NCBI RefSeq assembly: GCF_902686445.1
Contig: NC_062232.1
Location: forward strand, 16,970,897-17,034,896
Length of the DNA: 64,000 bases
Direction of reading: 5' to 3'
Origin: Sciurus carolinensis
Taxonomy: Eukaryota; Chordata; Mammalia; Rodentia; Sciuridae
The first letter of the stretch is position 1; the number at the start of each line of letters is the position of its first letter. The notes beneath the pieces were generated by a model. The model was not told the origin of the DNA. It made no database searches and worked only from the letters and a program-made list of their open reading frames with translations. Shown one piece after another: positions 1 through 53,415 of this stretch. The position numbers were made by a program, and so were the translations under genes.

Positions 1-883
1 GGATAAAGATGGTGATATGATTGCACTTGAATCTTGGTATTTTCCAAGGAATTGAGTCCTATAATTGATCTCAGCAGTATTTTTGGAGGAAGAGATTAAA
101 AGGAACTCACATCAATAAAGGGCTCTATAATTAAAACCTTATGTATTCCTTGTCCTTTAATACTACCTGTTCCAACAATGACCTAATAACTAGGTTTTGT
201 TTACCAAGAAGTTATCTTTTATCATGATGTTAATTTGAAGAGATAAAACAGGATAAGAGGAATAGGTTTTTAATAACAATAATGCATTGAAGATATTAAA
301 ATTTAATGACAAGAGGGCAAAGTCAAAGGAGTTTTTCCATTAAAAATTATTATGCTTGAAAAATAGTACATCTGTATCACAAATGTTAAATATGTTCATA
401 CCTTTTGACCTTGTAATTCTACTGCTAAAACTAGTAGTGTATTTGTGTATAAGGGTGTTTATTACAACTTTGTGTAAACTAGGTCATATTGGAAACAACC
501 TGATTTTCCACAAATGGGGATTATACTTAAATTAATTATAGTTCATCTATATAATGTACTTCAATAAATTTATTTTTCTAAGTAATATTTAAAGGACAAG
601 AAAATGCTTATGATAGAATGCTTAGCAAAGGGGAGAATAAGCCACATGAGTTATATGTGTATGCATATGTGTATGTTCATATGAATATACATGCATATAT
701 TCATAAATATACATGCATATGTATATGTGTATATGTGTACACACACACACTCATCTCAGTCTTTTTGTTAAAAATATACTTGTGTTTTGTAAATAGACTT
801 AAAAGAAGTATTTCAAATATGTAAGACAAAATTTACAGAACCCAAAATATAAATTTAAACAGATGATATAAAAATAAAGATTA
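1..883. other. AT-rich non-coding DNA
   Basis: No gene, exon or clear transposon is visible. Around 650-755 there is an impure ATATGC/TATGTG simple repeat ending in a short CA run. Open frames here are short and of simple-repeat composition, so I do not call them genes. Confidence 0.6.
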
Positions 884-899
884 AAGAGTCCTAATATTT

Positions 900-1019
900 T
901 TTAAAAATATTTTTTGTTGTTGATGGACCTTTATTTTATTTATTTATATGTGGTGCTGAGAATCAAACCCAGTGCCTCACAGGCAAGGGCTCTGCAACTG
1001 AGCTAGAACCCCAACCCCG
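900..1019 (-). repeat. ID-type SINE (squirrel ID family)
   Basis: On the minus strand this reads as a tRNA-Ala-derived SINE: GGGGTT near its start, an A-box-like tAGCTCAGTTGcAGAGC segment, a B-box-like GGTTTGATTC, then CACCACAT and an A/T-rich tail. Imperfect 16-bp direct repeats at 884-899 and 1020-1035 (AAGAG[T/A]CCTAATATTT) flank it and are read as the target-site duplication. The longer tail beyond the AAATAAAATAAA stretch is shared with the copy at 22949-23087, so both probably belong to one subfamily. Confidence 0.85.
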
Positions 1020-1035
1020 AAGAGACCTAATATTT

Positions 1036-1574
1036 CCACTTACTCTTAAATGGGGGTGATGGGTTGTCATATACACCCCCTGGGGTAAAGAAACTTTACC
1101 TTGAAGACTGAATGTGGTTAGTAGATTCTAAAGTCCAGTCTAACTAAGAAAAATTTCTGTTACATTTTAAACATGTAGATATTTTAAAATCATTTTTCTT
1201 TTTGGAATTGAATGTATTTCAGAGAAAATTGAATACTTTACTTCCATTTTCTTGTGGTATAGAAATTTTTCATGGTCACAATGAGGAAAAACAATCAAAT
1301 ATGATTATGCATGCCTGTTTCCCTTATCATTATTCTTTAATTTCTCATGTGTCTGAGTTGTTACATATCTTTTCACCTTCTAGAGTCTGTATATTGTTGG
1401 GCATTTTCTAAAATATAAATAAAATTAAATGTTAATTTTCCCTTCCATGTCATCAGAAGAATCCTTTATTCATAGTTTCAAAAGAACAGATTAAAACTTT
1501 TTAAAAACAAAATATAGGTATCAATTAGTTCAAAATCATTGAATAATTTTATGTATTTCTAAAAGGTGTTCATT
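1036..1574. other. Non-coding DNA, nothing recognised
   Basis: AT-rich sequence without a recognisable gene or repeat. A 69-codon open frame at 1202-1411 has no recognisable domain and is probably chance. Confidence 0.5.
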
Positions 1575-1740
1575 TTTATTGGTTATTTTTAGTTATACAT
1601 AATAATAGGATTCTTTTGATATAAATATAAAAGCATGGAATGTAATTTGCCCTAATTTAGTCCCAAGTACTTCCACTTTTCCTCCCCATACTTCCTCTTC
1701 CTGCTGTCTTCTCTTTACTGATCTTTCTTCTATTATAGGA
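1575..1740 (-). repeat. Old L1 3' end fragment
   Basis: The TTTTAGTTATACATaa motif followed by C/T-rich text matches the inverted 3' UTR pattern seen in the other minus-strand L1 copies in this window (for example near 14120 and 22780). It is diverged and truncated just before the younger L1 that starts about 1741. Confidence 0.5.
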
Positions 1741-2114
1741 TTTTTTTATTTTTTAATTTATTTGTATTATAAACAAATGGTATACATCTTGTTTCTCTGT
1801 TTGTACATGAAGTAGAGGCATACCATTTTGTGTAATCATACATTTACCTAGGGTAATAGTTTTTGATTCATTCTGTTAATTTTTTTCCTTCCCTCCAACC
1901 TCTCCCACCCCTCTTTGCCCTCTACACAGTTCCTCCTTCCTCCATTCCCCCCCCCCACCCATTATGTGTCATCATCCACTTATCAGCGAGATCATTTGTT
2001 CTTTGGTTTTTTTGAGATTGGCTTTACTCACTTAGTATGATATTCTCCAATTTCATCCATTTGCCTGCAAATGCCATAATTTTATTATTTTTTATGGCTG
2101 AGTAATATTCCATT

Positions 2115-2175
2115 GTGTGTGTGTGTGTGTGTGTGTGTGTCTATATATATATATGTATATATGTATATATATATC
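2115..2175. repeat. (TG)n/(TA)n microsatellite inside L1
   Basis: About ten TG units followed by TATATG repeats lie exactly where L1 ORF2 text reads CCATTGTATATATA in other copies of this window (for example near 53575). The tract has therefore grown from L1 sequence. Confidence 0.85.
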
Positions 2176-3935
2176 ACAGTTTCTTTATCCATTCATCAAC
2201 TGAAGGGCATCTAGATTGGTTCCACAATCTGGCTATTGTGAACTGAGCAGCTATGAACATTGATGTGGCTGTATCTCAGTAATATGCTGATTTTAAGTCC
2301 TTTGGGTATAGGCCAAGGAGTGGGATAGCTGGGTCAAATGGTGATTCCATTCCAAGTTTTCTAAGGAATCTCCACACTGCTCTCCAGAGTGGCTGCACTA
2401 ATTTGCAGCCCCACCAGCAATGTATGAGTGTACCTTTCTCCCCACATCCTCGCCAACACCTATTGTTGCTTGTATTCTTGATAATCACCATTCTAATTGG
2501 GGTGAGATGGAATCTTAGGATAGTTTTGATTTGCATTTCTTTTATTACTAGAGATGTTGAACATTTTTCATATATCTGTTGATTGCTTGTACATCTTCTG
2601 TGAAGTGTCTGTTATTTTATTAATTTTTTCGATTATTTCTTTTGCTTCAATTTCATTGATTTCAGCTCTGATTTTAACTATTTCCTGTCTTCTACTACTT
2701 TTGATGTTGATCTGCTCTTATTTTTCTAGGGCTTTGAGCTGTAGTGTTAAGTTGTTTATTTGTTGATTTTTACTTCTTTTGTTGAATGTGCTCCATGAAA
2801 TAAATCTTCCTCTAAGTACTGCTTTCATAGTGTCCCAGAGATTTTGATATGATGTGTCTTTGTTCTCATTTACTTCTAAGAATTTTTTTATGTCCCTCCT
2901 AATGTCTTCTGTTATCCATTCATCATACAATAGCATATTATTTAATCTCCAGGTGTTGGAGTATTTTCTGTTTTTTATTCTTTCATTTATTTCTAATTTC
3001 AGTCCATTATGATCTGATAGAATACAAGGTAGTATCTCTATCTTCTTGTATTTGCTAACAGTATCTTTGTGGCATAAAATATGGTCTATTTTAGAGAAGG
3101 ATTCATGTGCTACTGAGAAGAAAGTGTATTCGTTCTTTGTTGGATGTTTTTTTAAAGATGTTGAACACTTTTTCATATATCTGTTGATTGCTTGTAGATC
3201 TTCCTCTGTGAAGTGTCTTTTCATTTCCTTAGCCCATTTGTTGATTGGGTTATTTGTATTCTTGGTGTAGAGTTTTTTGAGTTCTTTATATATTCTGGAA
3301 TGTAGTGCTCTATCTGAAGTATGAGTGACAAAAATTTTCTCTGTAGGCTCTCTCCTCGTATTGCTGATAGTTTCCTTTGCTGAGAGAAAGCTTTTCAGTT
3401 TGAATCTATCCCAGTTGTTGATTCTTGCTTTTATTTCTTGTGCAATGGGAGTCCTGTTAAGGAAGTCTGATCCTAAGCCAACAAGTTGAAGATTTGGACC
3501 TACTTTTTCTTCTATAAGATGCAGGATCTCTGGTCTGATTCCAAGGTCCTTGATCCACTGTGAGTTGATTTTTGTGCAGGGTGAGAGATAGGGGTTTAAT
3601 TTCATTCTGTTGCATATGGATTCCCAGTTTTCCCAGCACCATTTGTTGAGGAGGCTATCTTTTCTCCACTGCATGTTTTTAGCTCCTTTGTCTAGTATGA
3701 GAAAATTGTATTTATTTGGGTTTGTGTCCATGTCCTCTATTCTGTACCATTGATCCACCTTTCTATTTTGGTACCAATACCATGCCGTTTTTGTTACTAT
3801 TGCTTTGTAGTAGAGTTGAAGATCTGGTATTGCGATACCCCCTGCTTCACTCTTCCTGCTAAGGATTGCTTTAACTATTTTGGGTTTCTTATTCTTCCAG
3901 ATGAACTTCATGAGTGCTTGCTGTATTTCTGTAAG

Positions 3936-3941
3936 GTATGT
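3936..3941. repeat. Provirus target-site duplication, left copy
   Basis: GTATGT directly precedes the LTR end TGTCACGC. The same six bases follow the opposite LTR at 11861. A 6-bp duplication is the usual size for class II endogenous retroviruses. Removing the provirus and one copy leaves continuous L1 ORF2 text. Confidence 0.95.
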
Positions 3942-4302
3942 TGTCACGCTCCCTGCCCGCAGAGAGACACAACACCTGGTTCTTTTCAGCTCTTTATTGC
4001 GCGCGTCTGCCGTGGTTTGTTTCTCGCTTCTTCTTCCTTCTTTTGGGGGAAGCTACACCTCGATATATGCCCCCAAGCGACCAATCATCATACAGAGCAC
4101 GAGGGGAGAGCGTGGACAGATACAGGCAGCATATACAGGCATGCAGTGTCCATGAGGGGGCTTCAACCAATCACTGAAACTTCCTCAAGCGACATCAGTT
4201 GTCTGCGCACAAGCTAGCTACACTCAACCACACTGGCATCCTGCCAGGCGCCATCTTGGCCTTGCCACACCTAGGGCCAGGGGTCCGGCCGAAACCCCGA
4301 CA
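3942..4302 (-). repeat. Provirus 3' LTR
   Basis: This 361-bp LTR is bounded by TG...CA. On the coding strand it starts TGTCGGGG, just after the polypurine tract, and ends GCGTGACA. It carries a CAAGATGGC (YY1-type) site near its start (4251-4258), two inverted CCAAT boxes (4081-4085, 4167-4171), a weak TATA-like CATATATC (4062-4069) and an AATAAA signal (3993-3998). It differs from the 5' LTR only at position 3946, where a CpG seen in the partner has become TpG on the coding strand. Confidence 0.97.
3993..3998 (-). terminator. Retroviral polyadenylation signal in 3' LTR
   Basis: AATAAA on the minus strand within GCGCAATAAAGAGC. It lies about 50 bases before the LTR end, which fits transcript 3' end formation in the R region. 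The same hexamer in the 5' LTR is at 11551-11556. Confidence 0.8.
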
Positions 4303-4320
4303 GTTCCCCCTTTTCTCTTT
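4303..4320 (-). promoter_or_regulatory. Polypurine tract (plus-strand primer site)
   Basis: The coding strand reads AAAGAGAAAAGGGGGAAC immediately before the 3' LTR start TGTCGG. A purine run abutting U3 is the RNase H-resistant primer for plus-strand DNA synthesis. Its exact abutment supports the LTR boundary. Confidence 0.93.
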
Positions 4321-4339
4321 TAAAAAGAAAAGGAAAGCT

Positions 4340-4466
4340 CGGGACCGTGCCTGTCTTAGGCGGAGTGGTCAACCACCGTCCTTACCCGTCATCGGATAAC
4401 TGCAGAGCATGCTACAGCTCCTGTCTTAGGTTGGTACGGTGGTCACCTCCTACCTTACCCGTCTGG
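4340..4466 (-). promoter_or_regulatory. CTE-like RNA export element
   Basis: Between the env stop and the polypurine tract, two imperfect copies of one module occur in RNA sense. Each starts GACGGGTAAGG (4453-4463; 4380-4390) and ends CCTAAGACAGG (4420-4430; 4350-4360). The linker can form a hairpin with stem CTGTAG/CTGCAG around loop CATGCT. Duplicated modules with GGGTAA and AAGACAGG in two-fold symmetry, placed between env and the 3' LTR, are the hallmark of the constitutive transport element of type D simian retroviruses, which binds NXF1 (TAP) to export unspliced RNA. Motif and position are seen; function is inferred from the known element. Confidence 0.85.
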
Positions 4467-6203
4467 CTAGCGATCCAGCATCGTGAGCCATACTTGTGGG
4501 GAACTGCCGGCCTCTAGGGCAGCCATGGCCTGATGGAAAATGATACGATCTCTAGCTTGATCTCGGCGCATGCGCATGATAAAGCGTGTGAGGAAGATAA
4601 CAGCAACAACCATGAACATACAAAAGGCTCCCATACCTGCCCATTGTTTTACAAAGCTGAAAGAGGAGGATAACCAACTTAGCACTTCGGACATAGGGGC
4701 TACATTAACTCTAGTAGCATTAAGGCTAACAATTTGAGATCTAAGAATAGCAGTAAGATTATCAAATGTATAAGACCAATTTGTTTGTAGCTGAGCAGAC
4801 AAGATTCTAGACAAGTTTGCTGCATAACTGAAATTATGGTAAGCTACAGGTGTAACGCACAGTCCCGTCAGACGATAAATACATCCCACGTTTAACAGTT
4901 CCTGTAAAATGTCTATTTGTTCTTGAAGCAAGTCCACTCGCTGGTTTACTAAAAGAATCCCTGCTTTTAAGTGTTGATCCACTGTCTGCTGAGTAGATAA
5001 GGCAGTAGCAGTCTGTTGAACCACCTTATTGATTGTGGCTGCAGATTGTACAGACGTAGTTAAGGCTACAGCTGCGGCAGTGGCGGCTGCCGCTGATGCA
5101 ACTACGGCGGTGATGACTGCTGCGGTGATTCCAAAATCTCTCTTATTTCTGGAAAGCAATACTGGCAATTCATCATCTGTAACAGAGACCGGCATGGGCA
5201 AGAAAGTAGGGATACGCATAATGACAGCTCGGGAATATTTTGTTGCGTTCCAACACTGAGAAAGATAGCAGTTAGTTCCAGAGCAGCTGAGGGTCGTGCC
5301 ATTAGAAACATTAGTCAATAGGAACATAAAAGGAGGGTAGACACACACAGGAGTGGGATACAATGTTATAGTATTGTTACAGGCTATCTTACTGGCCTGG
5401 GAAGGGCCCGTGCCAGTATGATCTGAAGTGAGATTCCAATAACAGGCCTTAAACGAACCTCCTTGTAGAGCAAACAAAGGCTGAAGATTAGTATATCCTG
5501 CTTGGGAGGTAAATAGGAACCAATTATCAAAAGGATTTATACTTTGACAAAAGCCAAAGTAGACGAGGTTTTGGATAAAATTGTTCACAGATCGCTGGTA
5601 TGTAAAGTTTGGGGTGAAATAAAATCCATGTTGAATAGGAGCTGCTCCTTCAGCATGTTGACAACCTGTCCAAATGGGAGGACTAGAAACTTTGGGGTCA
5701 CAAGGAGGGAAAATACGAGGTGTATGAAATCCAGTGGATGGCAGTTTCAGTCGCTTTGGAATTAATCCTTTAAGAAAGACAACTTGCCCTGAAGTAGTAA
5801 TCTTACTTGTCCCTGTAACTTCACCCTGGGTTATAGTCATACTTTCTTGGAAACCATTCCCCTTGGTAGGCTGTCTTGAAAACAACCCTTGCACTTCACG
5901 CTGCAATTGAATGCAGGGCCTAAGAGAAGTGTCATTAACAAATTTGTTATTGGTAGAGATATCAAAGCAAAGGGTACCTGGCAGAGAAAGGGTAGAAAAA
6001 TTATAAGGTTCTTCCTTGGGATCCATGATGACAGTTGGCAATCCAGTCCTAGGTCCTGTAGAAAACAAAGGTGGAAGGGTAGAGGAGGTGTTAGTTAGCG
6101 GCAAAGGATATGGCCAAGCCTTAACTATTGCCCACAGGTCTCGAGTCTTCACCGGTGTCATTGTCATCATCAATAGGATGTTTATCAGCACGATGTTCTT
6201 CAT
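4467..6203 (-). CDS. env: Envelope glycoprotein (Env), intact frame
   Basis: This is an uninterrupted 578-residue precursor for receptor binding and membrane fusion at the cell surface. In order: a hydrophobic N-terminal signal region (residues about 3-18), a surface subunit rich in N-glycosylation sequons (about nine), a furin-type RNKR site at 352-355, and an Ala/Val-rich fusion peptide (about 357-385). A coiled-coil heptad region (about 395-437) and a C-X7-C loop (441-449) follow. A membrane anchor (about 521-542) precedes a cytoplasmic tail of about 36 residues. CX6CC is absent, as in betaretroviral rather than gammaretroviral transmembrane subunits. The start overlaps the pol end by 83 bases. 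It is the first ATG after a good splice acceptor 61 bases upstream (6264/6265), so a singly spliced message is expected. Nothing in the frame looks broken. Confidence 0.93.
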   Translation of the reverse strand: MKNIVLINILLMMTMTPVKTRDLWAIVKAWPYPLPLTNTSSTLPPLFSTGPRTGLPTVIMDPKEEPYNFSTLSLPGTLCFDISTNNKFVNDTSLRPCIQLQREVQGLFSRQPTKGNGFQESMTITQGEVTGTSKITTSGQVVFLKGLIPKRLKLPSTGFHTPRIFPPCDPKVSSPPIWTGCQHAEGAAPIQHGFYFTPNFTYQRSVNNFIQNLVYFGFCQSINPFDNWFLFTSQAGYTNLQPLFALQGGSFKACYWNLTSDHTGTGPSQASKIACNNTITLYPTPVCVYPPFMFLLTNVSNGTTLSCSGTNCYLSQCWNATKYSRAVIMRIPTFLPMPVSVTDDELPVLLSRNKRDFGITAAVITAVVASAAAATAAAVALTTSVQSAATINKVVQQTATALSTQQTVDQHLKAGILLVNQRVDLLQEQIDILQELLNVGCIYRLTGLCVTPVAYHNFSYAANLSRILSAQLQTNWSYTFDNLTAILRSQIVSLNATRVNVAPMSEVLSWLSSSFSFVKQWAGMGAFCMFMVVAVIFLTRFIMRMRRDQARDRIIFHQAMAALEAGSSPQVWLTMLDR

Positions 6204-8766
6204 CGTTGTTTTGATGCACCAGTCTCGTCAACCTTTCAGGTATCCAGATCGGTGTTTGCTGATCCTGCGGGAAAACACAAACAGACCCTCGGACCCACCG
6301 AAGAACTGGATCTGGGCCTTTCCATGTTCCTGTGAGAATATCTTTCCATCTTACCCACACTTGAGTACTTGCGGGATTAGCATGTCTTTCTGCAGCCGTA
6401 TGTCCATTCTTATCCACATTTAAAAAATTTAAAATAAAAAGTACTAAATTTAGTTTATCTTTAGGTGCTCTAAAGTCAGCACCTATTCCCCCTTTTTGTT
6501 TTTGTAAGCAATTTTTTAACGTTAAATGAGTGCGCTCCACTATGCCTTGTCCTTGAGGATTATAAGGAATTCCTGTGATAAGTTGTATATTAAAAGTTTG
6601 TGTAAATTGTAAGAAACTTTTGGATGTGTAAGCCGGTCCATTGTCAGTTTTAATGATTTTAGGAATGCCCCAGGCTGCAAAGGCCTGTAAACAATGTTGT
6701 ATGACATCTTTAACCTTTTCACCTGTGTGAGCAGAGGCCATGATCACTCCTGAGGCAGTGTCAACTGACACATGAACATATTTAAGTTTTCCAAACTCTG
6801 AAAAATGAGTAACATCCATTTGCCAAATATGATTAGGTAAAAGTCCCTTGGGATTTACTCCAGTAGACTGAACTGGTAATAATGGAGCACAATGTTGACA
6901 TGTTTTAACAATTTGTCTGGCAGCATCTTTAGAAATATTGAATTTTCTTCTAAGGGTAGTAGAATTGACATGAAACTGTGAATGAAACATCTGGGCTTGT
7001 TTGAATGCTGTAAAAGCAAAAACAGTTTTTGTAGTTTTGTCAGCTTTAGCATTTGCTTTGGCGAGTGGCCCCGGCAGATTAGAATGAGCTCTAATATGTC
7101 CTATATAAAAGGGATACTTGCGGTCTAAGATTAATGCACGCAAAGTTCGAAAATAAGGAGCAACTGCGGATCCATCAGGAATATAAGGAACAGTTTCTAA
7201 ACAGGGCACTGATTGTACTATATAATGACTGTCAGATAATAGATTGAAAGGCTGCTCTATCATAATGTTAAAAGCTAAAACTACTGCAGCAAGTTCTACT
7301 ACTTGGGCAGATGAAGGGGGGAGAATAACAGTTTCTACTTTATCATCAATTATTACTGCTCCCACTCCATTTTTAGATCCATCAGTGAATATGGTTTGGC
7401 AATGAGGTAAGGGCTGCGTTTTGGTAATTTTTGGAAATATAATTGGAGTATTTTTACAGAATTGTATCCATGGATGTTTAGGATAATGATTATCAAATGT
7501 TGCTGTGGTTGAGCAATACAAAACAGCCCAATCATCATCATGTTGAATCAACCATTGTATTTGTAGTTTAGTATAGGGAATAATAATGACCTCAGGATGG
7601 CTTCCAAATATAGTAACGCAGGCTTCTAACACTTTATATATTAATTGAGCTATTGCTTTAGGAAATGTTTGTAATTGTTTTGTAGGCGATGCTGGGAGAT
7701 TAATACTTTGTAAAGGTCCTCCTTGCCATATAATTCCATATGGACTATGTTGTTCTGGAATAATGATTAACATTAGAGGCTGGAATGGATCACATCTTTC
7801 TGTGTGATCTGACTGTAATCTTTGTTCCACCAATGTAAGAGCTCTTCGTCCTTCTGGAGTAAGGATCCTCAGGGAACAAAGATCAGGATCTCCCTTAAGT
7901 ATATCAAATAAAGGTTTTAATTCTCCTGTGGTAATTTTTAAATATGGCCTAATCCAATTTATATCTCCAAGAAGCTTTTGAAAGTCATTTAAAGTTTTAA
8001 GTTCACTAGTTCTAATAGTTAGTTTTAGAGGCTTTACCATAGTAGCCGTAAGTTTAGTGCCCAGATATTCTTGAGTTTCTCCCATTTGTAACTTTTCTGG
8101 AGAGATGTTTAAACCATATTGCTGTAGAGTAGATATTAAGAATTGCAAAGCCTTTTCCAGTAACTGTTTATTGTCATGACAAAGAAGAATATCATCCATG
8201 TAATGATAAATCAATAAATCTGGGAAGGTCTCCCTAGTAGGTTTTAAGGCTTTATCTACATAAATTTGACATAACGTAGGACTATTAGCCATGCCTTGAG
8301 GCAATACAGTCCATTCAAATCTTTGATCAGGCTGTGCATGATTGAGAGAAGGTAAAGTAAAAGCAAATCGCCAACAATCCTTGGCATGTAATGGAATTGA
8401 GAAAAAACAATCTTTTAAATCTAAAATAATGGTGGGCCAATTTTTAGGTAAGGCTGTGACTAATGGCAATCCACGTTGTAGAGGACCCATAGGAAACATC
8501 TGTGCATTAATAGCCCTTAAATCATGTAATAGTCTCCATTTTCCAGACCCTTTTTTTTTAATGACAAAGATGGGTGTATTCCAGGGAGAAGTAGAAAGTT
8601 GTAAATGTCCTGCCTGTACTTGTTCTTGTACTAATTTATGAGCCGCTTGTAATTTTTCTATAGTTAAGGGCCACTGTGGAATCCATTGCGGCTTATCATC
8701 CTTCCAAACTATTGGAATAGGTGTAATAACAGTGGCCCCTACATAAAACCCAGCCCTTCGAAATCG
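6121..8766 (-). CDS. pol: Pol: reverse transcriptase, RNase H, integrase
   Basis: The frame is open for roughly 880 codons from the pro-pol slippery site; the first internal ATG (8499) lies well inside RT and is not the start. RT shows LPQG and the catalytic YMDD (8191-8202). RNase H shows TDGS and SDS acidic motifs. Integrase shows an HX3H plus CX2C zinc finger (HSQFH ... CQHC). Its DD35E core has Asp in WQMDVTH, Asp in KTDNGP and Glu in GIVERTH, with exactly 35 residues between the last two. The product would be made as Gag-Pro-Pol by two -1 frameshifts and cut by the viral protease. It copies RNA to DNA and inserts it into the genome. The end overlaps env by 83 bases. I see no missing catalytic residue. 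Confidence 0.94.
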   Translation of the reverse strand, partial: RFRRAGFYVGATVITPIPIVWKDDKPQWIPQWPLTIEKLQAAHKLVQEQVQAGHLQLSTSPWNTPIFVIKKKGSGKWRLLHDLRAINAQMFPMGPLQRGLPLVTALPKNWPTIILDLKDCFFSIPLHAKDCWRFAFTLPSLNHAQPDQRFEWTVLPQGMANSPTLCQIYVDKALKPTRETFPDLLIYHYMDDILLCHDNKQLLEKALQFLISTLQQYGLNISPEKLQMGETQEYLGTKLTATMVKPLKLTIRTSELKTLNDFQKLLGDINWIRPYLKITTGELKPLFDILKGDPDLCSLRILTPEGRRALTLVEQRLQSDHTERCDPFQPLMLIIIPEQHSPYGIIWQGGPLQSINLPASPTKQLQTFPKAIAQLIYKVLEACVTIFGSHPEVIIIPYTKLQIQWLIQHDDDWAVLYCSTTATFDNHYPKHPWIQFCKNTPIIFPKITKTQPLPHCQTIFTDGSKNGVGAVIIDDKVETVILPPSSAQVVELAAVVLAFNIMIEQPFNLLSDSHYIVQSVPCLETVPYIPDGSAVAPYFRTLRALILDRKYPFYIGHIRAHSNLPGPLAKANAKADKTTKTVFAFTAFKQAQMFHSQFHVNSTTLRRKFNISKDAARQIVKTCQHCAPLLPVQSTGVNPKGLLPNHIWQMDVTHFSEFGKLKYVHVSVDTASGVIMASAHTGEKVKDVIQHCLQAFAAWGIPKIIKTDNGPAYTSKSFLQFTQTFNIQLITGIPYNPQGQGIVERTHLTLKNCLQKQKGGIGADFRAPKDKLNLVLFILNFLNVDKNGHTAAERHANPASTQVWVRWKDILTGTWKGPDPVLRWVRGSVCVFPQDQQTPIWIPERLTRLVHQNNDEEHRADKHPIDDDNDTGEDSRPVGNS
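6264..6284 (-). promoter_or_regulatory. Candidate env splice acceptor
   Basis: The coding strand has a pyrimidine-rich TGTTTGTGTTTTCCCGCAG, with the exon beginning at 6264. No ATG intervenes before the env ATG at 6203. Together with the donor at 11461/11462 it would give an env subgenomic RNA. Inferred from consensus only. Confidence 0.65.
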
Positions 8767-9677
8767 TTTTTTGGAGGAGGAAGGGGGATGGGTTGTGAAG
8801 GCCCTTGTTGTTTCTTCCCTAATCCCAAACCTTCTGTATACTTCATTTTTCTCATCATACGTGCTGCAGGTTTAGAATTAATGTTTGTTGTCAACTTAGC
8901 ATTCATCTGAGTTAAGACATCCCTTCCCCATAAAGAAATAGGTATTTTACAAATATATGGTTGGAACACCCCTGAATGACCCTCATTATCCCTCCAAGAC
9001 AGTGAAGCAGCACTCTGGTTAGGCGATTGAGCCACTCCCAACCCTTGTAGGTTTTGATTAGCTGTAACTACAGGCCAACCTTTGGGCCAAACTGCCTCAC
9101 TTATTATACTTTTATCAGCTCCTGTGTCCAGTAATCCTATAAAAGGTTTATGCCCTACTGTTAGTTGCATAATGGGTCTATCTTGGAGGTCCATAGTAAA
9201 ATTAGCCCAGGGTCCACCTGTAGACCCGAATCCTTTATCTCCTCTTGTTGTCTCCCTACTAGGCCATAAAGAATGTTGGCTAGGCAAAATTAACATTTGT
9301 GCTATTCTGTCTCCTGGAGAAATGACTGTAATCCCTTTGGGTGAAGAAATCATAGCCCTAACTTGTCCTTGAAAGTCTGGGTCAATTACTCCTGGGTGGA
9401 CTATAAGACCTCTTAAAGTAGAAGAACTTTTGCCAAGGAGCAACCCTACTGAGTCTGCAGGAATATTGCCATCCCAGTCTGTGTCCACCATTTGTACACC
9501 CATATCAGGTGTTAGTACGAGTCTGGAGGTGGCACAGATGTCCAATCCTGCGCTTCCTGTTGTGGCCCTCCGCTCCTGGGCAGTGTCCCCTTCTCTGTCG
9601 GGGGGTACCACTGCCTGGGCACTTGTTGGATTACCCCGTATATTTGTGGCGGGCCCCGGGGCGGGCCCCTCATCACG
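8739..9677 (-). CDS. pro: Pro: dUTPase, aspartic protease, G-patch
   Basis: The frame is read by -1 frameshifting from gag at the A AAA AAC site 9677-9683; it has no ATG start of its own near the beginning. The N-terminal dUTPase keeps its five motifs, including SAGLDI, the GVIDPDFQG segment, GDRIAQ and the GFGSTG tail; it lowers dUTP to limit uracil incorporation. The aspartic protease follows with LLDTGAD at the active site and GRDVL near its end; it matures Gag and Pol. A glycine-rich G-patch (GLGLGKKQQG) closes the protein. This order is characteristic of betaretroviruses and IAP-like elements. The frame stops at 8739 just after the second slippery site. Confidence 0.93.
   Translation of the reverse strand, partial: RDEGPAPGPATNIRGNPTSAQAVVPPDREGDTAQERRATTGSAGLDICATSRLVLTPDMGVQMVDTDWDGNIPADSVGLLLGKSSSTLRGLIVHPGVIDPDFQGQVRAMISSPKGITVISPGDRIAQMLILPSQHSLWPSRETTRGDKGFGSTGGPWANFTMDLQDRPIMQLTVGHKPFIGLLDTGADKSIISEAVWPKGWPVVTANQNLQGLGVAQSPNQSAASLSWRDNEGHSGVFQPYICKIPISLWGRDVLTQMNAKLTTNINSKPAARMMRKMKYTEGLGLGKKQQGPSQPIPLPPPKNDFEGLGFM
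8766..8772 (-). promoter_or_regulatory. Pro-pol -1 frameshift site (A AAA AAC)
   Basis: The coding strand reads AAAAAAC with pro-frame codons CCA AAA AAC, the exact phase needed for tandem slippage. The -1 frame is then open into RT, while the pro frame ends nine codons later. A strong downstream stem is less obvious here than at the gag-pro site. Confidence 0.88.
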
Positions 9678-11176
9678 TTTTTTGTCATCCTGGTATTGGG
9701 TGGCAGAATATTACCCTGTTTGTCTCTAACGGATTTACACTCACTGAGCCAGTGTGGACCTTTTTGGCACCGAGGACATAAGCCTGGGGCTTGATGAGGC
9801 GAAGCTGGTTTTTGTGGGCATGTTGCTTTTAAATGACCCGCTTGTCCACAGCTAAAACATTTCCTTGGTTCTGGTTTAGATTTCCCTCCAAATCCCTGAG
9901 AAACAATATTAGCAAGTGTCTGGGTCTGTCTGTCTATAGCAGCAACAAATGCCGCATTATTTCCTGTAGATTCATTAATATCTTTACATACTCTCAGATA
10001 AGTAGTAAGATCTTTATTTTTCCAAGGTCTAATTGCTTCTTTACACCACTTATTAGCCTGTTCATAAGCCAATTGTTTTACCAAAGGCATTGCAGAGTCA
10101 GCGTCCCCAAAAATTCTTGAAGCAGTCTGTATTAACCTGTCTACAAAATCTGCATACGGCTCATTGTTTCCTTGAGTAACTTTAGACAACTGTCCCTGTA
10201 AGTCTCCAGTTCCTTGTAATGTTTTCCAAGCCTTAGTTGCGGCTACTGCTATTTGAGCATAAACCGCTGGATGATAATTAACTTGAGCCTGTACCCCTTC
10301 ATAAGGCCCCGTTCCCATTAACATATCTCTGTCTACTTGTGGATTTCCTGCAGCTGCGTTACGCCTTGCAGTATCTGTTGAAAGTTCCTGCCAAGACATC
10401 TTCCACATAAGGTACTGCCCTCCTGATAATGTGGCTCTAGCTAAATTAGTCCAATCTAGAGGTAATAAATTTAGAGACATCATGGTTTCCACCAGAGACA
10501 CCGTAAAGGCAGATTGAGGCCCATAAGTACTGACAGCTTCCTTTAGCTGTTTGACCATTTTAAAATCTATAGGTTGGTGATAACGTTGTTGCTGTGCGTC
10601 CTCAAACACTGGATAAACGCTATCTTCCTGTACTGTAGACCATCCTGTATGTCTACTAGACCCAGTAACAGGAGGGAGATCCATTGGGGGTGCAGAGGGT
10701 GTAACAGGCACCAGAGGGCGCTCCTTCCCCAATTTTAATTTTTGTACCCTTTGTTCCAGTTCCTCTCCTGAGAGTTCCCCTTCAGAGTCAGAACCCATTT
10801 CACTTCCCCCTCCTATTTCACTTCTCCTTCCTGAAGTACATGACTGTTCCTCTTTAATTTCTTCTAAAACTTGACTTCCCTCTTCTAAAGATTTTTGTGA
10901 ACTTGGCTTTTTACTTTGTAAGCAAGATCTAATCAAAGACCAGATGGCTAGAGTCCCCACAGGGAGTGATACCTGTTTGTCTGCTACGTGCAGATCTTCT
11001 CCTAGCTGTTCCCATTGAGGTATGTTTAACAACCCCTCCTCCAGAAACCAAGGGGATACCTTTTCTATTGTATCTAAGAATGTACGTGCTGTCTTTGCCT
11101 TTAATGGAGTGCCGTTGCTCTTTAACAGTTCCCGGAGGGGCTGTTGCATCCTAGTCTTAGATAGTTCCGTTCCCAT
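9512..11176 (-). CDS. gag: Gag polyprotein, intact frame
   Basis: This structural precursor drives particle assembly. I choose the ATG at 11174-11176 because it gives MGTELS, a standard N-myristoylation signal; the upstream in-frame ATG at 11197 would add seven residues and lose it. From the chosen start the length is 554 residues. Matrix-like N-terminus; acidic, Ser/Glu-rich linker (about 95-145); a PSAP late-domain motif at about 160-163, expected to recruit TSG101 for budding; capsid with a major homology region (QGNNEPYADFVDRL); and nucleocapsid with two CX2CX4HX4C zinc knuckles in the last quarter. The gag-pro slippery site lies about 57 codons before the stop. No internal stop or frameshift is seen. 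Confidence 0.94.
   Translation of the reverse strand: MGTELSKTRMQQPLRELLKSNGTPLKAKTARTFLDTIEKVSPWFLEEGLLNIPQWEQLGEDLHVADKQVSLPVGTLAIWSLIRSCLQSKKPSSQKSLEEGSQVLEEIKEEQSCTSGRRSEIGGGSEMGSDSEGELSGEELEQRVQKLKLGKERPLVPVTPSAPPMDLPPVTGSSRHTGWSTVQEDSVYPVFEDAQQQRYHQPIDFKMVKQLKEAVSTYGPQSAFTVSLVETMMSLNLLPLDWTNLARATLSGGQYLMWKMSWQELSTDTARRNAAAGNPQVDRDMLMGTGPYEGVQAQVNYHPAVYAQIAVAATKAWKTLQGTGDLQGQLSKVTQGNNEPYADFVDRLIQTASRIFGDADSAMPLVKQLAYEQANKWCKEAIRPWKNKDLTTYLRVCKDINESTGNNAAFVAAIDRQTQTLANIVSQGFGGKSKPEPRKCFSCGQAGHLKATCPQKPASPHQAPGLCPRCQKGPHWLSECKSVRDKQGNILPPNTRMTKNVMRGPPRGPPQIYGVIQQVPRQWYPPTEKGTLPRSGGPQQEAQDWTSVPPPDSY
9648..9669 (-). promoter_or_regulatory. GC-rich frameshift stimulator candidate
   Basis: Seven bases after the gag-pro slippery site the RNA becomes almost pure G/C, with self-complementary GGGG and CCCC blocks. 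A further CGGGGTA can pair with a downstream TACCCC. The spacing suits a frameshift-stimulating hairpin or pseudoknot. The pairing was worked out by eye, not folded. Confidence 0.55.
9677..9683 (-). promoter_or_regulatory. Gag-pro -1 frameshift site (A AAA AAC)
   Basis: Gag codons ACA AAA AAC place the AAAAAAC heptamer in the required phase, and the -1 frame is open straight into the dUTPase. A structured GC-rich stretch begins seven bases downstream. Confidence 0.92.
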
Positions 11177-11310
11177 GATGTAATAATCCACTAGCACTAA
11201 GACTTAAGAAGACTACACACACAAACCAAACAAGGAGAACAAAAGAAAAAACAAGAACACACATCAATCGCTTATCACACATTGACAAAGAACTACATAT
11301 ACTTCTGTTT
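11177..11310 (-). other. U-rich leader just before gag
   Basis: In RNA sense the leader segment next to the gag ATG is strongly U/G-rich, with long runs of T, TTC and TTG. No ORF is present. Possible roles such as ribosome loading are unproven. Confidence 0.5.
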
Positions 11311-11316
11311 TAGCTC

Positions 11317-11425
11317 AGGCTCGTAGCCTCTTTCCTGTTAACTCAGGCTCGCAGCCTCTTTCCTGTTTTCCTTTACACTCAGGCTCACAGCCGTTTTATG
11401 TGTCTAGAGATCAGGTTCGCAACCT
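11317..11425 (-). promoter_or_regulatory. Four tandem stem-loops, putative packaging signal
   Basis: Four copies of a 13-base hairpin occur at 11317-11329, 11345-11357, 11381-11393 and 11413-11425. Consensus in RNA sense is AGGCT-GCG-AGCCT, usually with AAAG on the 5' side and GAG on the 3' side. The copy at 11413-11425 has AGGTT/AACCT, so both stem sides changed together and pairing is kept. The copy at 11381-11393 loses only the closing pair. All lie downstream of the splice donor and would be in genomic RNA only. That position suits packaging or dimerisation; function is inferred. Confidence 0.7.
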
Positions 11426-11455
11426 CTTTCAAACTTTATACTTTACCTGTTGATT

Positions 11456-11463
11456 ACTTACCT
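11456..11463 (-). promoter_or_regulatory. Major splice donor candidate
   Basis: The coding strand reads AG|GTAAGT, a perfect donor consensus, with the exon ending at 11462. It lies 16 bases past the primer-binding site. It would serve the env message with the acceptor at 6264/6265. Confidence 0.75.
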
Positions 11464-11478
11464 ATCGTGTTACTGAGC

Positions 11479-11497
11479 TCCCGGGGTTTCAGCACCA
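11479..11497 (-). promoter_or_regulatory. Primer-binding site, tRNA-Phe-like
   Basis: Two bases after the 5' LTR the coding strand reads TGGTGCTGAAACCCCGGGA. The known primer site complementary to mammalian tRNA-Phe, used by rodent IAP elements, matches this except for one substitution and one extra C. The TGG start pairs with the CCA end of tRNA. The Phe assignment rests on remembered tRNA sequence. Confidence 0.75.
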
Positions 11498-11499
11498 CC

Positions 11500-11860
11500 T
11501 GTCGCGCTCCCTGCCCGCAGAGAGACACAACACCTGGTTCTTTTCAGCTCTTTATTGCGCGCGTCTGCCGTGGTTTGTTTCTCGCTTCTTCTTCCTTCTT
11601 TTGGGGGAAGCTACACCTCGATATATGCCCCCAAGCGACCAATCATCATACAGAGCACGAGGGGAGAGCGTGGACAGATACAGGCAGCATATACAGGCAT
11701 GCAGTGTCCATGAGGGGGCTTCAACCAATCACTGAAACTTCCTCAAGCGACATCAGTTGTCTGCGCACAAGCTAGCTACACTCAACCACACTGGCATCCT
11801 GCCAGGCGCCATCTTGGCCTTGCCACACCTAGGGCCAGGGGTCCGGCCGAAACCCCGACA
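11500..11860 (-). repeat. Provirus 5' LTR (promoter LTR)
   Basis: This 361-bp copy matches the 3' LTR at all but one position. On the coding strand it runs TGTCGGGG to GCGCGACA. Its U3 has a YY1-type CAAGATGGC at 11809-11816, inverted CCAAT boxes at 11725-11729 and 11639-11643, and a TATA-like CATATATC at 11620-11627. AATAAA follows at 11551-11556. The CpG-rich composition makes it a likely target of DNA methylation. Confidence 0.97.
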
Positions 11861-11866
11861 GTATGT
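11861..11866. repeat. Provirus target-site duplication, right copy
   Basis: GTATGT follows the terminal CA of the LTR and matches 3936-3941 exactly. The L1 ORF2 text then resumes with CATTGGGATTTTAATTGG. Confidence 0.95.
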
Positions 11867-13232
11867 CATTGGGATTTTAATTGGAATTGCATTGAATCTG
11901 TATAGCACTTTTGGTAGTATGGTCATTTTGACAATATTAATTCTTCCTATCCAAGAACACGGGAGATCTTTCCATCTTCTAAGGTTTTCTTTAATTTCTT
12001 TCTTTAGTGTTCTGTAGTTCTCATTGTAGAGGTCTTTCACCTCTTTTGTGAGATTGATTCCCAAGTATTTTATTTTTTTTTGAGGCTATTGTGAATGGGG
12101 TAGTTTTCCTAACTTCTCTTTCTGAAGATTCATCACTTATGTATAAAAATGCATGGGATTTATGAGTATTGATCTTGTAAACCTGCTACTTTACTGAATT
12201 CACTTATGAGTTCTAAAAGTTTTCTGGTGGAATTTCCTGGTTCTTCTAAATATATAATCATGTCATCTGCAAATAGGGATAGTTTCAGTTCTTCTTTTCC
12301 TATTTGTATCTCTTTAATTTTCTTGGTCTGTCTAATTGCTCTGGCTAGAGTTTCAAGGATGATGTTGAATAGAAGTGGTGAAAGAGGGCATCCCTGCCTT
12401 GTTCCAGTTTTTAGGGGGAATGCTTTCAGTTTTTCACCATTTAAAATCATATTGGCCATGGTCTTAGCATAGATGGCCTTTACAACGTTAAGAAATGTTC
12501 CCACTATCCCTATTTTTTCTAGTGTTTTGAGCATGAAGGAATGCTGTATTTTATCGAATGCTTTTTCTGCATCTATCGAAATAATCATGTGATTCTTGAC
12601 TTTAAGTCTGTTGATATGGTGAAATACATTTATTGATTTCTGAATGTTGAACCAACCTTGCATTCCTGGGATAAAACCCACTTGATCGTGGTGCACTATC
12701 TTTTTAATATATTTTTGTATGCGATTTGCTAAGATTTTGTTTCATCATTTTTGCATCAATGTTCATGAAGGATATTGGTCTGAAAATTTCTTTCCTCGAT
12801 GTGTCTCTGTCTGGTTTAGGTATCAGGGTGATATTGGCTTCATAGAATGAGTTTGGGAGGGTTCTCTCCTCTTCTATTTCATGGAATACTTTGAGGAGTA
12901 TTGGAATGAGCTCTTCTTTAAAGGTTTTGTAGAACTCGGCTGAGAACCCATCTGGTCCTGGACTTTTCTTTGTTGGTAGTCTTTTGATGACTTCTTCTAT
13001 TTCATTACTTGAAATTGGTCTATTTAAATTGTGTATGTCCTCCTCGTTCAGTTTAGGCAATTCATATGTCTCTAGAAACCTGTTGATGTCTTCAAGATTT
13101 TCTGTTTTGTTGGAGTATAGATTTTCAAAATAGCTTCTGATTATATTTTGTATTTCACTCGTGTCTGTTGTGATATTTCTTTGGTCATTCTGAATTTAGT
13201 AATTTGAGTTTTCTCTCTCCTTCTCTTTGTTA
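11861..13232 (-). mobile_element. L1 retrotransposon, 5' part (ORF2 RT region)
   Basis: This continues the L1 broken by the provirus. ORF2 text is readable on the minus strand at 12704-13060 ([17 protein letters not shown] finger region) and 12160-12696 ([13 protein letters not shown] and catalytic FADD). Small frameshifts separate the pieces, and the stretch nearest the LTR (from about 12064 down) is in another frame. The element is 5'-truncated about 13232 within ORF2, at the TLTKRRREKTQIT region, so ORF1 and the 5' UTR are missing. It is a dead copy. Confidence 0.9.
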
Positions 13233-13530
13233 GTGCAGCTAAGCATATATGTACATAGGAAAGATAGGTTAGATTCATTCCACTGCTCTTCCCTTATCCC
13301 TTACTTCATCCTTCCCTCTTATTCCCCTTGTCTAATTTACCAATCTTTCTTCTGTTTTGATGGAATCCATCCCAGCCTTCCTTTCTCTCACCCCTTATTT
13401 TGCAGAGAAAACAATCAACCTTTGACTTTTTGAGCCTGACTTTTTTCACTCAGCACAATGGTCTCAGTTCCATCCATTTACCAGAGAATGCCATGATTTC
13501 ATTATTCTTTATGACTGAGTAATATATTCC

Positions 13531-35062: not shown

Positions 35063-35162
35063 GGGCTGGGGTTGTAACTCAGTTGGTAGAGCGCTTGCTT
35101 TGCATGCACAAGGCCCTGGGTTCAATCCCCAGCACCACCAAAAAAAAAAAAAAAAAAAAAAA
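35063..35162 (+). repeat. ID SINE, young copy
   Basis: Best-preserved ID copy: A box TAACTCAGTTGGTAGAGCG, B box GGTTCAATCC, CACCACC, then an A run of about 23 bases. Direct repeats AAGAATAATG[C/G]TTTT at 35048-35062 and 35161-35175 form the target duplication. The intact pol III boxes and pure A tail indicate recent insertion. Confidence 0.93.
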
Positions 35163-35700: not shown

Positions 35701-36746
35701 ATGAGAAAACAAGGGAAGAAAATGTCCCAAACAAACCTAGATTCTATATCAACAAAACCCAATGACAGCACAGCAGAAGAAATGTCAGAAAGGGAGATCA
35801 GAATGTACATAATTAAAACAATCAGGGAAGCAAATGAGGAGATGAAAGAGCAAATGCAGGCATTGAAGGAGGAGATGAAAGAGCAAATGCAGGCATTAAA
35901 TGATCGCACCAATCAACAGTTAAAAGAGCAAATACGGGAAGCAAGAGATCATTTCAATAAAGAGTTAGAGATACTGAAAAAAAAAAAAACAGAAATCCTT
36001 GAAATGAAGGAAACAATAAACCAAGTTAAAAACTCCATAGAAAGCATAACCAATAGGATAGAACACCTAGAAGACAGAACCTCAGACATTGAAGAAAAAA
36101 TATTTAATCTTGAAACCAAAGTTGACCAAATAGAGAAGATGGTAAGAAATCATGAACAGAATCTACAAGAATTATGGGATATCATGAAAAGGCCAAATTT
36201 AAGAATTATTGAGATTGAGGAAGGCTTGGAGAAACAAACCAAAGGAATGAACAATCTATTCAATGAAATAATATTAGAAAATTTCCCAAATCTGAAGAAT
36301 GAAATGGAAAATCAAGTACAAGAGGCTTATAGGACTCCAAATATACAAAATTACAACAGACCCACACCAAGGCACATTATTATGAAAATACCTAACATAC
36401 AAAATAAAGACAGAATTTTAAGGCCGCAAGAGAAAAGAATCAAATTACATTCAGGGGGAAACCAATAAGAATATCAGCAGATTTTTCAATCCAGACCCTA
36501 AAAGCTAGAAGGGCCTGGAACAACATTTACCAAACCCTGAAAGAAAATGGATGTCAACCAAGAATCTTATACCCAGCAAAACTTACCTTCAAATTTGACG
36601 ATGAAATTAAATCATTCCATGATAAACAAAAGCTAAAAGAATTTACAAAAAGAAAGCCAGCATTACAGAACATTCTCAGCAAAATACTCCATGAGGAAGA
36701 GATGAAAAACAATGATGCAAATCAGCAACGGGAGGAACTAGCCTAA
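35701..36746 (+). pseudogene. L1 ORF1 (RNA-binding chaperone), frameshifted
   Basis: 255 codons read from MRKQGKKMSQ through a long coiled coil and into the RNA-binding domain (PTPRHIIMK, NIQNKDRIL). One missing base near 36420, in a short A run, shifts the frame. The remaining C-terminal domain (about 36424-36746) continues in another frame to its normal stop. The coiled coil contains an exact 11-codon tandem duplication in protein terms, apart from its last residue (EEMKEQMQAL[K/N], 35836-35868 and 35869-35901). ORF1 protein trimerises and coats L1 RNA. Confidence 0.88.
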
Positions 36747-36802
36747 AGGAATAGCCAAATAAAGGAGAAACCAAATCATGTCAAAAAACAAAAATGAGTC
36801 AA

Positions 36803-39800: not shown

Positions 39801-40592
39801 ATAAAAGCAAGAATCAACAACTGGGATAGATTCAAACTAAAAAACTTTCTCTCAGCAAAGGAAACTATCAGTAATGTGAAGAGAGAGCCTACAGAATGGG
39901 AGAAAATCTTTGCCACTCACACTTCAGATAGAGCGCTAATTTCCAGAATCTATAAAGAACTGAAAAAACTCTACACCAAGAATACAAATAATCCAGTCAA
40001 CAAGTGGGCTAAGGAAATGAACAGACACTTCACAGAAGAAGATGTAGAAGCATTCAACAGGTATATGCAAAAATGTTCAACATCTCTAGTTATAAGAGAT
40101 ATGCAAATCAAAACTACCCTAAGATTTCATCTCACCCCAATTAGAATGGCGATTATCGAGAACACAAGCTACAATAGGTGTTGGAGAGGATGTGGGGAAA
40201 AAGGTACACTCATACATTGCTGGTGGGGTTGCAAATTAGTGCAGCCACTCTGGAAAACAGTATGGAGATTCCTCAGAAATCTTGGAATGGAACCACCATT
40301 TGACCCAGCTATCCCATTCCTTGGCCTATACCCAAAGGACTTAAAATCAGCATACTACAGAGATACTGCTACATCAATGTTCATAGCTGCTCAATTCACC
40401 ATAGCCAGATTGTGGAACCAACCTAGATGCCCTTCAGTTGATGGATGGATAATGAAACTGTGGCATACATATACAATGGAATATTACTCCGCCATGAAGA
40501 ATGATAAAATTATGGCATTTGCAGGCAAATGGATGAAATTGGAGAATATCATGCTAAGTGAGATAAGCCAATCTCAAAAAACTAAAGGATGA
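36803..40592 (+). pseudogene. L1 ORF2 (endonuclease and RT), broken
   Basis: The endonuclease domain reads at 36803-37083 (NGLNSSIKRHRLADW, CCLQETHL) and 37157-37582 (LGDFNTPLS, ILSDHNGLK). RT reads at 38396-38752 and onward with [10 protein letters not shown] and catalytic FADD (about 38888). The C-terminal part is an uninterrupted 498-codon frame (39096-40592) with the Cys-rich segment. A small deletion near 36830, frameshifts near 37083 and 39095, and stops near 37582 and 38750 inactivate it. ORF2 protein nicks target DNA and reverse-transcribes L1 RNA. Confidence 0.88.
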
Positions 40593-40641
40593 ATAATCTC
40601 GCTGATAAGTGGATGAGGACATATAATGGGGGGTGGGAGGT

Positions 40642-51414: not shown

Positions 51415-51621
51415 AGTCAGGTACAGTGGCATAGGCCTGTAATCCCAGCAACTCGGGAGGCTGAGGCAGGAGGATCATGAGTTCAAAGCCAGTCTCAGCA
51501 AAAGTGAGGCCCTAAGCAACTCAGTGAGACCCTGTCTCTAAATAGAATACAAAATAGGGTTGGGGAGGTGACTCAGTGGTCGAGTGCCCCTGAGTTCAAT
51601 CCCCGTTACCCCCTGAAAAAA
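51415..51621 (+). repeat. B1-ID composite SINE
   Basis: 51415-51555 is B1/Alu-like (TGTAATCCCAGCAACTCGGG, GGCTGAGGCAGGAGGATC). From about 51556 an ID-like tRNA part follows (GGTTGGGGAGGTGACTCAG, GTTCAATCCCC), then a short A tail. AATCTTCC at 51407-51414 and 51622-51629 is the target duplication. Such B1-ID dimers are known from squirrels, dormice and guinea pigs, which supports the host assignment. Confidence 0.88.
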
Positions 51622-52915: not shown

Positions 52916-53415
52916 NNNNNNNNNNNNNNNNNNNNNNNNNNNNNNNNNNNNNNNNNNNNNNNNNNNNNNNNNNNNNNNNNNNNNNNNNNNNNNNNNNNNN
53001 NNNNNNNNNNNNNNNNNNNNNNNNNNNNNNNNNNNNNNNNNNNNNNNNNNNNNNNNNNNNNNNNNNNNNNNNNNNNNNNNNNNNNNNNNNNNNNNNNNNN
53101 NNNNNNNNNNNNNNNNNNNNNNNNNNNNNNNNNNNNNNNNNNNNNNNNNNNNNNNNNNNNNNNNNNNNNNNNNNNNNNNNNNNNNNNNNNNNNNNNNNNN
53201 NNNNNNNNNNNNNNNNNNNNNNNNNNNNNNNNNNNNNNNNNNNNNNNNNNNNNNNNNNNNNNNNNNNNNNNNNNNNNNNNNNNNNNNNNNNNNNNNNNNN
53301 NNNNNNNNNNNNNNNNNNNNNNNNNNNNNNNNNNNNNNNNNNNNNNNNNNNNNNNNNNNNNNNNNNNNNNNNNNNNNNNNNNNNNNNNNNNNNNNNNNNN
53401 NNNNNNNNNNNNNNN
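52916..53415. other. Assembly gap (500 N)
   Basis: Exactly 500 N, a round placeholder size, so the true length is unknown. Frames crossing it are artefacts. The right edge falls inside telomere-like L1 3' UTR repeats. Confidence 0.99.

What the first reader, a model, noticed from the sequence alone, without database searches (positions are those of the whole stretch)
3942..11860. Provirus with all four reading frames open
Gag, pro, pol and env are each uninterrupted, catalytic and structural motifs are in place, and cis-acting signals from primer site to polypurine tract are intact. Full coding capacity is unusual for an endogenous retrovirus and suggests a lineage that is or was recently active in this host.
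Basis: partly seen in the sequence, partly recalled or inferred. Interest (0 to 1): 0.88.

Follow-up and report, generated by a model that had tools for sequence, protein, structure and literature searches.

The report
Young coding-complete squirrel-type endogenous retrovirus
This stretch is one retrovirus copy whose four genes all read without a break and whose two ends differ at a single base, so it likely entered this genome (likely that of a squirrel-group rodent) recently and is predicted to have been able to make virus particles, a known but uncommon state.

Summary
Minus strand 11860-3942 is a full provirus: 361-bp LTRs differing at 1 of 361 positions, a perfect 6-bp target-site duplication, and gag, pro, pol and env open with their motifs. 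It lies inside a LINE-1 ORF2; the flanks, joined, match a second L1 across the junction at 94%. Each frame change has an in-phase A AAA AAC heptamer. Pol falls on the mouse-IAP side of an unrooted tree, away from simian type D virus, but outside the mouse-IAP clade. Env is beta type (CX7C), its predicted fold nearest HERV-K Env, its best hit a grey squirrel protein (60%). Not in the finding: between env and the polypurine tract lies a two-fold symmetric RNA element with two AAGACA loops, like the SRV-1 constitutive transport element (CTE). So a beta-type Env without a Rec/Rem-like leader is paired with a type-D-style export element; Tap-binding motifs were already reported in bat elements that did not take the gamma Env. 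Open frames need no selection: about 0.4 stops are expected at this LTR distance. Intact young ERVs are known in 123 surveyed vertebrates. Copy number, polymorphism and expression are untested (the genome search did not complete). Ordinary in kind, well preserved.

The parts
3936..3941 (.). target-site duplication GTATGT, left copy
   Evidence: identical to 11861-11866
11861..11866 (.). target-site duplication GTATGT, right copy
11500..11860 (-). 5' LTR, 361 bp, TGTCG...CGACA ends, AATAAA starting at 11556
3942..4302 (-). 3' LTR, 361 bp, one difference from the 5' LTR (3946, CpA where the 5' LTR has CpG)
11480..11497 (-). primer-binding site TGGTGCTGAAACCCCGGG, tRNA-Phe-like (tRNA identity recalled; one mismatch and one extra base)
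   Evidence: primer not tested
11461..11462 (-). splice donor in the leader (ATAG/GTAAGT)
   Evidence: only GGTRAGT in the leader
11310..11367 (-). 28-bp tandem repeat, 2.1 copies, in the leader
9512..11176 (-). gag, 554 aa: myristoylation-type start, p10/MA, PSAP, p24, two CCHC
9677..9683 (-). predicted gag-pro slip site A AAA AAC, in phase
8739..9710 (-). pro frame (stop to stop), 323 aa: dUTPase, protease DTGA, G-patch
8766..8772 (-). predicted pro-pol slip site A AAA AAC, in phase
6121..8871 (-). pol frame (stop to stop), 916 aa: RT (YMDD), RNase H, integrase (HHCC, DDE)
6265..6265 (-). best splice-acceptor candidate before env (TTTTCCCGCAG), 62 nt before its ATG
   Evidence: 12 of 15 pyrimidines; one of two candidates in 6204-6700
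4467..6203 (-). env, 578 aa: short leader, RNKR cleavage site, CX7C, 14 N-glycosylation sequons, GP41-type TM
4345..4468 (-). CTE-like RNA element, two-fold symmetric in the predicted fold, two AAGACA internal loops
   Evidence: sequence and predicted fold only
4304..4321 (-). polypurine tract AAAAGAGAAAAGGGGGAA
3156..3941 (-). host LINE-1 ORF2 sequence, downstream flank of the insertion (collinear with the second L1; further left, 1936-3146, also L1 but out of order)
11867..13235 (-). host LINE-1 ORF2 sequence (reverse transcriptase part), upstream flank of the insertion

Best explanation
This is a single class II (betaretrovirus-like) endogenous provirus with all four genes open and LTRs that differ at 1 of 361 bases, and it likely entered the germline of a squirrel-group rodent within about the last 2-4 million years and would spread by making enveloped particles that reinfect cells. 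Shown: a complete provirus with a perfect 6-bp duplication inside a LINE-1, four open frames, in-phase slippery heptamers, splice-site and primer-site sequences and polypurine tract, a beta-type Env motif, and a CTE-like sequence between env and the polypurine tract. Inferred from established betaretrovirus biology: the LTR drives one transcript; [quoted passage not shown] Env comes from the spliced RNA; unspliced RNA would leave the nucleus through NXF1/Tap bound at the CTE-like element, since the short Env leader shows no Rec/Rem-like basic stretch; Gag is predicted to bud at the plasma membrane by its myristate and PSAP motif. By ancestry it is nearest to IAPE, IAP elements with a beta-type envelope, as a lineage outside the murid IAP clade.
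For: LTRs and duplication; open frames and motifs; L1 empty-site match, 94% over 997 bases across the joined flanks; pol tree: 100% SH-aLRT split with the query on the side of mouse IAP, hamster IAP and Nannospalax, and SRV-1 and prosimian retrovirus on the other; env tree: grey squirrel sister at 100/100, 60% identity over 81%; TM matches PDB chains of HERV-K Env by sequence (9nnd_a, which its depositors label 'Endogenous retrovirus group K member 7 Pol protein', E 3.6e-9; 9mla_D, E 8.9e-8), and the Env model's only two Foldseek hits with E of 0.001 or less are HERV-K Env structures; CTE-like element: two exact motif pairs, none in 100 shuffles, fold z -2.60, 3 of 200 shuffles as good, AACCTAAGACAGGAG shared with the SRV-1 CTE half printed in PMC4330393. 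Host: ID-type SINE and B1-ID dimer; the SINE family names are recalled.
Against: Age rests on one difference, so its interval is wide (0.01-3.9 My over assumed, not host-measured, rates of 2-4.5e-9). The pol tree is unrooted, by the quick method, and without MMTV, JSRV or HML rows known as such, so 'IAP side' is a split and not a rooted clade; plain identity does not separate the sides (RT/RNase H 49.0% to mouse IAP, 50.4% to hamster IAP, 49.7% to SRV-1). The Env model is weak (mean pLDDT 64; TM-scores 0.29 by query and 0.42-0.47 by target). The second SRV-1 half-element primer shares only 10 exact bases and 16 of 27 ungapped, no more than shuffles reach (10 and 18); a wider fold scores only z -1.60, 11 of 200 shuffles; and Rfam gives no family for the CTE-like element. 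Seven of the eight XXXYYYZ heptamers found at the two overlaps are in phase, so phase alone does not single out A AAA AAC. The window alone does not prove germline transmission, expression or infectivity.
Confidence: 0.85

Rival explanations
1. An older insertion whose LTRs were made alike by gene conversion or by collapse in the assembly, so that it only looks young.
For: One pair of LTRs cannot tell conversion from youth; the window has an assembly gap of 500 N elsewhere (52916-53415).
Against: Both target-site duplications are identical, four long frames are open, and CpG is far less decayed than in the flanks (0.41 against 0.11 in 12001-64000 and 0.08 in 1-3935); an old copy would need all of these kept.
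Confidence: 0.06
2. Open frames kept by selection because the host uses Env or Gag (for example a placental or restriction role).
For: Env and Gag are fully open; co-opted envelopes are known in mammals (recalled).
Against: All four frames are open, not one, and the youth of the insert suffices: 0.42 stops expected, 0.66 probability of none (substitutions only).
Confidence: 0.04
3. A somatic integration of an exogenous virus in the sequenced animal and not a germline locus.
For: Near-identical LTRs and full coding capacity are also what an exogenous provirus shows; a likely exogenous sciurid betaretrovirus is described (GPDRV, PMC7354474).
Against: A single somatic integration would rarely reach an assembly (inference); GPDRV itself differs in Env type, primer site and LTR length.
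Confidence: 0.05

Closest known systems
IAPE (mouse IAP elements with an envelope)
   Same: Class II gag-pro-pol; beta-type Env; IAP side of the pol split; tRNA-Phe-like primer site (recalled). A mouse IAPE copy is reported as fully functional and infectious (PMC3197615, abstract and passages).
   Different: Outside the clade that holds mouse and hamster IAP (RT/RNase H 49-50% identical); Env nearest to grey squirrel (60%); has a CTE-like element after env; whether IAPE has one was not tested.
Simian type D betaretroviruses (SRV-1, M-PMV)
   Same: CTE-like element right after env (PMC3621094 places the M-PMV/SRV CTE there); two frameshifts, dUTPase in pro and PSAP in Gag are recalled as shared.
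   Different: Env is CX7C beta type, not gamma type; [quoted passage not shown]
   Same: Sciurid-associated, gag-pro-pol-env betaretroviral order, dUTPase and G-patch in pro.
   Different: LTR 403 bp, tRNA-Gln primer site, CX6CC Env (PMC7354474, abstract, passages and section 3.4.1); a different virus.
ERVi (recently invading intact ERVs of vertebrates, PMC10435555)
   Same: Intact gag, pro, pol, env; near-identical LTRs.
   Different: LTRs 360/361, not identical; polymorphism untested. Its supplementary lists could not be read, so whether it lists a close relative is unknown.
IAP-like elements of mustelids
   Same: Gag of mustelids (Mustela lutreola 49% over 97%, M. putorius 73% over 36%) is among the nearest named Gags.
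   Different: Separate gag branch; their other genes were not examined.

Membership tests
Betaretrovirus-like class II ERV | separate pro frame with dUTPase, protease and G-patch, placed for two -1 frameshifts | tested here: met
   frames 1, 2, 0 modulo 3; frameshifting itself not tested
Betaretrovirus-like class II ERV | 6-bp target-site duplication | tested here: met
   (that 6 bp is typical is recalled)
IAPE | beta-type Env (CX7C, no CX6CC) | tested here: met
   HERV-K-like by sequence and model
IAPE | pol within the murid IAP clade | tested here: not met
   query sits with P0029, P0030 and a long-branch rabbit row, outside the 39-row group that holds mouse and hamster IAP; no row named IAPE was in the tree; hence 'nearest to IAPE', not 'an IAPE'
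IAPE | tRNA-Phe primer-binding site | tested here: inconclusive
   tRNA sequence recalled only, one mismatch and one extra base
Simian type D (SRV/M-PMV) | gamma-type Env with CX6CC | tested here: not met
Simian type D (SRV/M-PMV) | CTE downstream of env | tested here: met
   sequence and predicted fold only; NXF1 binding not tested
HML-2/MMTV | Rec- or Rem-like protein in the Env leader | tested here: not met
   4 K/R in the first 35 residues, no run of three basic residues in Env; other frames and spliced products not searched
ERVi (PMC10435555) | identical LTRs | tested here: not met
   360 of 361
ERVi (PMC10435555) | intact gag, pro, pol, env | tested here: met
ERVi (PMC10435555) | insertional polymorphism | not testable with these tools
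   no population reads

The most novel reading that the evidence does not exclude
A retrovirus lineage still invading living squirrels that joins an IAPE-like beta-type Env to an M-PMV-type NXF1 export element: direct evidence that the type D export element existed in beta-Env viruses before the type D lineage took its gamma-type Env.
Probability: 0.2. Interest if true: 0.6.

Novelty: new member of a known kind. Interest (0 to 1): 0.42.

Why it matters
A coding-complete young IAPE-like provirus outside the murid IAP clade would be a reference for the enveloped ancestors of IAP elements. Its beta-type Env together with a CTE-like element bears on a question asked in print (PMC3621094, passages): did the type D CTE predate the swap to a gamma-type Env, or come with it? 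That bat study already reports Tap-binding motifs in most of its group VII elements, which did not take the gamma Env, so this is added support and not the first case. It also adds a candidate for surveys of ongoing retroviral invasion.

Tried and rejected
Host genome search for other copies of the LTR: the same request ten times, never answered. Viral contigs: no relative by Env or Gag (six peptide patterns each) and no CTE motif pair. Rfam: only a tRNA at gathering threshold, which reads as a tRNA-derived SINE (ARAGORN finds no tRNA); for the CTE region four sub-threshold hits, best Ms_AS-1 at 21.8 against a cut-off of 37 bits, taken as chance. Carnivore SINE patterns: none. Simian type D membership: rejected on Env. 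GPDRV identity: rejected on Env, primer site and LTR length. The long minus-strand frame 2718-4052 has no Pfam hit; it overlaps L1 sequence and the 3' LTR. Ribet 2008 on IAPE is not held. PMC1904242 uses 'IAPE' for an IAP export element in pol, a different meaning (passages). PMC2674570 and PMC1363727 (passages) gave background on NXF1, CTE and the RTE of murine IAP only.
Full report
What is there. The minus strand from 11860 to 3942 is a complete provirus. Its LTRs are 361 bp, begin TGTCG and end CGACA, and differ at one position in 361, a CpG in the 5' LTR that reads CpA in the 3' LTR on the + strand. The 6-bp duplication GTATGT flanks it on both sides. The provirus sits, in sense orientation, inside LINE-1 ORF2: 3156-3938 on the left and 11866-13235 on the right match neighbouring stretches of a second L1 in the window at 92% and 94%, and 500+500 bases of flank joined without the provirus and with one duplication match 38795-39790 at 94% over 997 bases. 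Further left, 1936-3146 is also L1 sequence but out of order.

Coding capacity. gag (554 aa), pro (323 aa frame), pol (916 aa) and env (578 aa) have no internal stop and no unknown residue. Pfam finds the expected domain series (zf-CCHC for the first zinc knuckle is just under its cut-off). The order of frames is right for two -1 shifts, and an A AAA AAC heptamer lies in phase in each overlap, at 9683 and 8772. Other XXXYYYZ heptamers are there too: five in all were listed at the first overlap, four of them in phase, and three at the second, all in phase; A AAA AAC is preferred because it is the heptamer known from betaretroviruses (recalled). A consensus splice donor (11462) and a pyrimidine-rich acceptor candidate (6265, the better of two) bracket a predicted env message. 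The primer site TGGTGCTGAAACCCCGGG (11497-11480) looks like tRNA-Phe with one mismatch and one extra base; the tRNA is recalled, not looked up. The polypurine tract is at 4304-4321.

How young. One difference in 361 gives 0.31-0.69 My at assumed rates of 4.5 to 2e-9 per site and year, with Poisson limits from 0.008 to 3.9 My over those rates. At that distance 0.42 stops are expected in the coding frames from substitutions, and none with probability 0.66; at the upper limit of the distance 2.3 are expected and none with probability 0.10. Open frames are therefore what youth predicts; they do not by themselves show selection or present activity. CpG observed/expected is 0.41 in the provirus against 0.11 in 12001-64000 and 0.08 in 1-3935.

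What it is kin to. All three protein searches used provirus proteins. Env: 25 hits (7995 candidates scored, a capped set); the best is a grey squirrel protein at 60% over 81%; 13 of the 25 carry a species name and all 13 are rodents. Of the 25, 23 went into the tree (P0025 and P0028 left out), where the query and grey squirrel are sisters at 100/100. Pol: 496 hits, 120 listed, best an unnamed Logan contig at 70% over 90%. The 120 were thinned to 69 at 75% identity and cut to RT/RNase H; the query pairs with that contig (99), then joins P0030 and a long-branch rabbit row (98), on the mouse-IAP side of a 100% split from SRV-1 and prosimian retrovirus, but outside the 39-row group that holds mouse and hamster IAP (quick method, unrooted). 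Identity alone does not separate the sides: 49.0% to mouse IAP, 50.4% to hamster IAP, 49.7% to SRV-1. Gag: 62 hits (7994 candidates scored, capped), 43 used with the query; the query groups with two Logan rows (100), separate from the ground squirrel and marmot gags, with mustelid gags among the nearest named rows. The best identities listed are 60% (Env), 70% (Pol, of the 120 listed) and 73% (Gag), so no near-identical protein was seen in that database; the host genome itself could not be searched.

Env type. The TM has CX7C and no CX6CC. By sequence it matches 9nnd_a (E 3.6e-9, labelled 'Endogenous retrovirus group K member 7 Pol protein' by its depositors) and 9mla_D (E 8.9e-8), then lentiviral gp41 chains. 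The AlphaFold model (22 rows, mean pLDDT 64; residues 348-433 and 491-507 under 50) has only two Foldseek hits with E of 0.001 or less, both HERV-K Env (9mla_A, 9sya_A). TM-scores are low (0.29 by query, 0.42-0.47 by target), so this is support, not proof. Published text defines IAPE as IAP with a beta-type env (PMC3758190, passages), and a mouse IAPE copy is reported infectious (PMC3197615, abstract and passages).

The export element. Between the env stop and the polypurine tract, 4345-4468, the motif pair GACGGGTAAG ... CCTAAGACAGG occurs twice; the pair occurs in none of 100 shuffles of the window (the pattern was read from this sequence, so this shows only that it is no accident of composition). 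The predicted fold is one long hairpin in which both AAGACA stretches lie in internal loops (unpaired probability 0.63-1.00 per base) with z -2.60, 3 of 200 shuffles as good; a longer stretch gives z -1.60, 11 of 200. PMC4330393 (passages) states that the retroviral CTE has internal loops in two-fold symmetry with a conserved AAGACA in each unit, and prints primers for the SRV-1 half-element. The window shares 15 exact bases with one primer (longest in 1000 shuffles 12; 17 of 22 ungapped against a shuffle maximum of 16) and 10 with the other (shuffles also reach 10; 16 of 27 ungapped against a shuffle maximum of 18). So one half is clear and the other is not significant on its own. Rfam holds no family that matches above its cut-off. 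The Env leader is short, with four K/R in 35 residues and no basic triplet in Env, which gives no sign of a Rec/Rem-like protein; other frames were not searched. The likely reading is NXF1-driven export. PMC3621094 (passages and section 10) asks whether the type D CTE predated the gamma-type Env, reports Tap-binding motifs in most group VII bat elements, and states that group VIII left groups VI and VII by taking a gamma env; this provirus agrees with the 'before' reading but does not settle it, since later recombination could also bring a CTE in. Ten paper searches list no paper that by title or abstract start describes this provirus; nine papers were opened, in passages or sections only; the library is open-access only and no supplement could be read, so the element lists of PMC10435555, which used grey squirrel data, remain unseen.

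Host. An ID-type SINE (about 35064-35141) and a B1-ID dimer (about 51420-51620), together with the Env neighbour, point to a squirrel-group rodent. The SINE names are recalled. The species is not known.

Verdict. It is a new member of a known kind, with one useful extra, the CTE-like element beside a beta-type Env.

Noticed in passing
   Followed up: yes
11310-11367: 28-bp tandem repeat (2.1 copies) in the untranslated leader, where a packaging signal might lie.
   Followed up: no
52916-53415: Run of 500 N, an assembly gap; ORFs listed across 52791-53537 run through it and mean nothing.
   Followed up: partly
35701-40632: A LINE-1 copy on the + strand with an open ORF1 part and parts of ORF2 open, 92-94% like the L1 that carries the provirus.
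   Followed up: partly
10688-10699: Gag has a PSAP but no PPxY late motif.
   Followed up: no
window gag against P0150, P0155, P0161, P0162: Nearest named Gag relatives include mustelid (predator) IAP-like proteins, closer than the ground squirrel and marmot ones, which hints at transfer between orders.
   Followed up: partly
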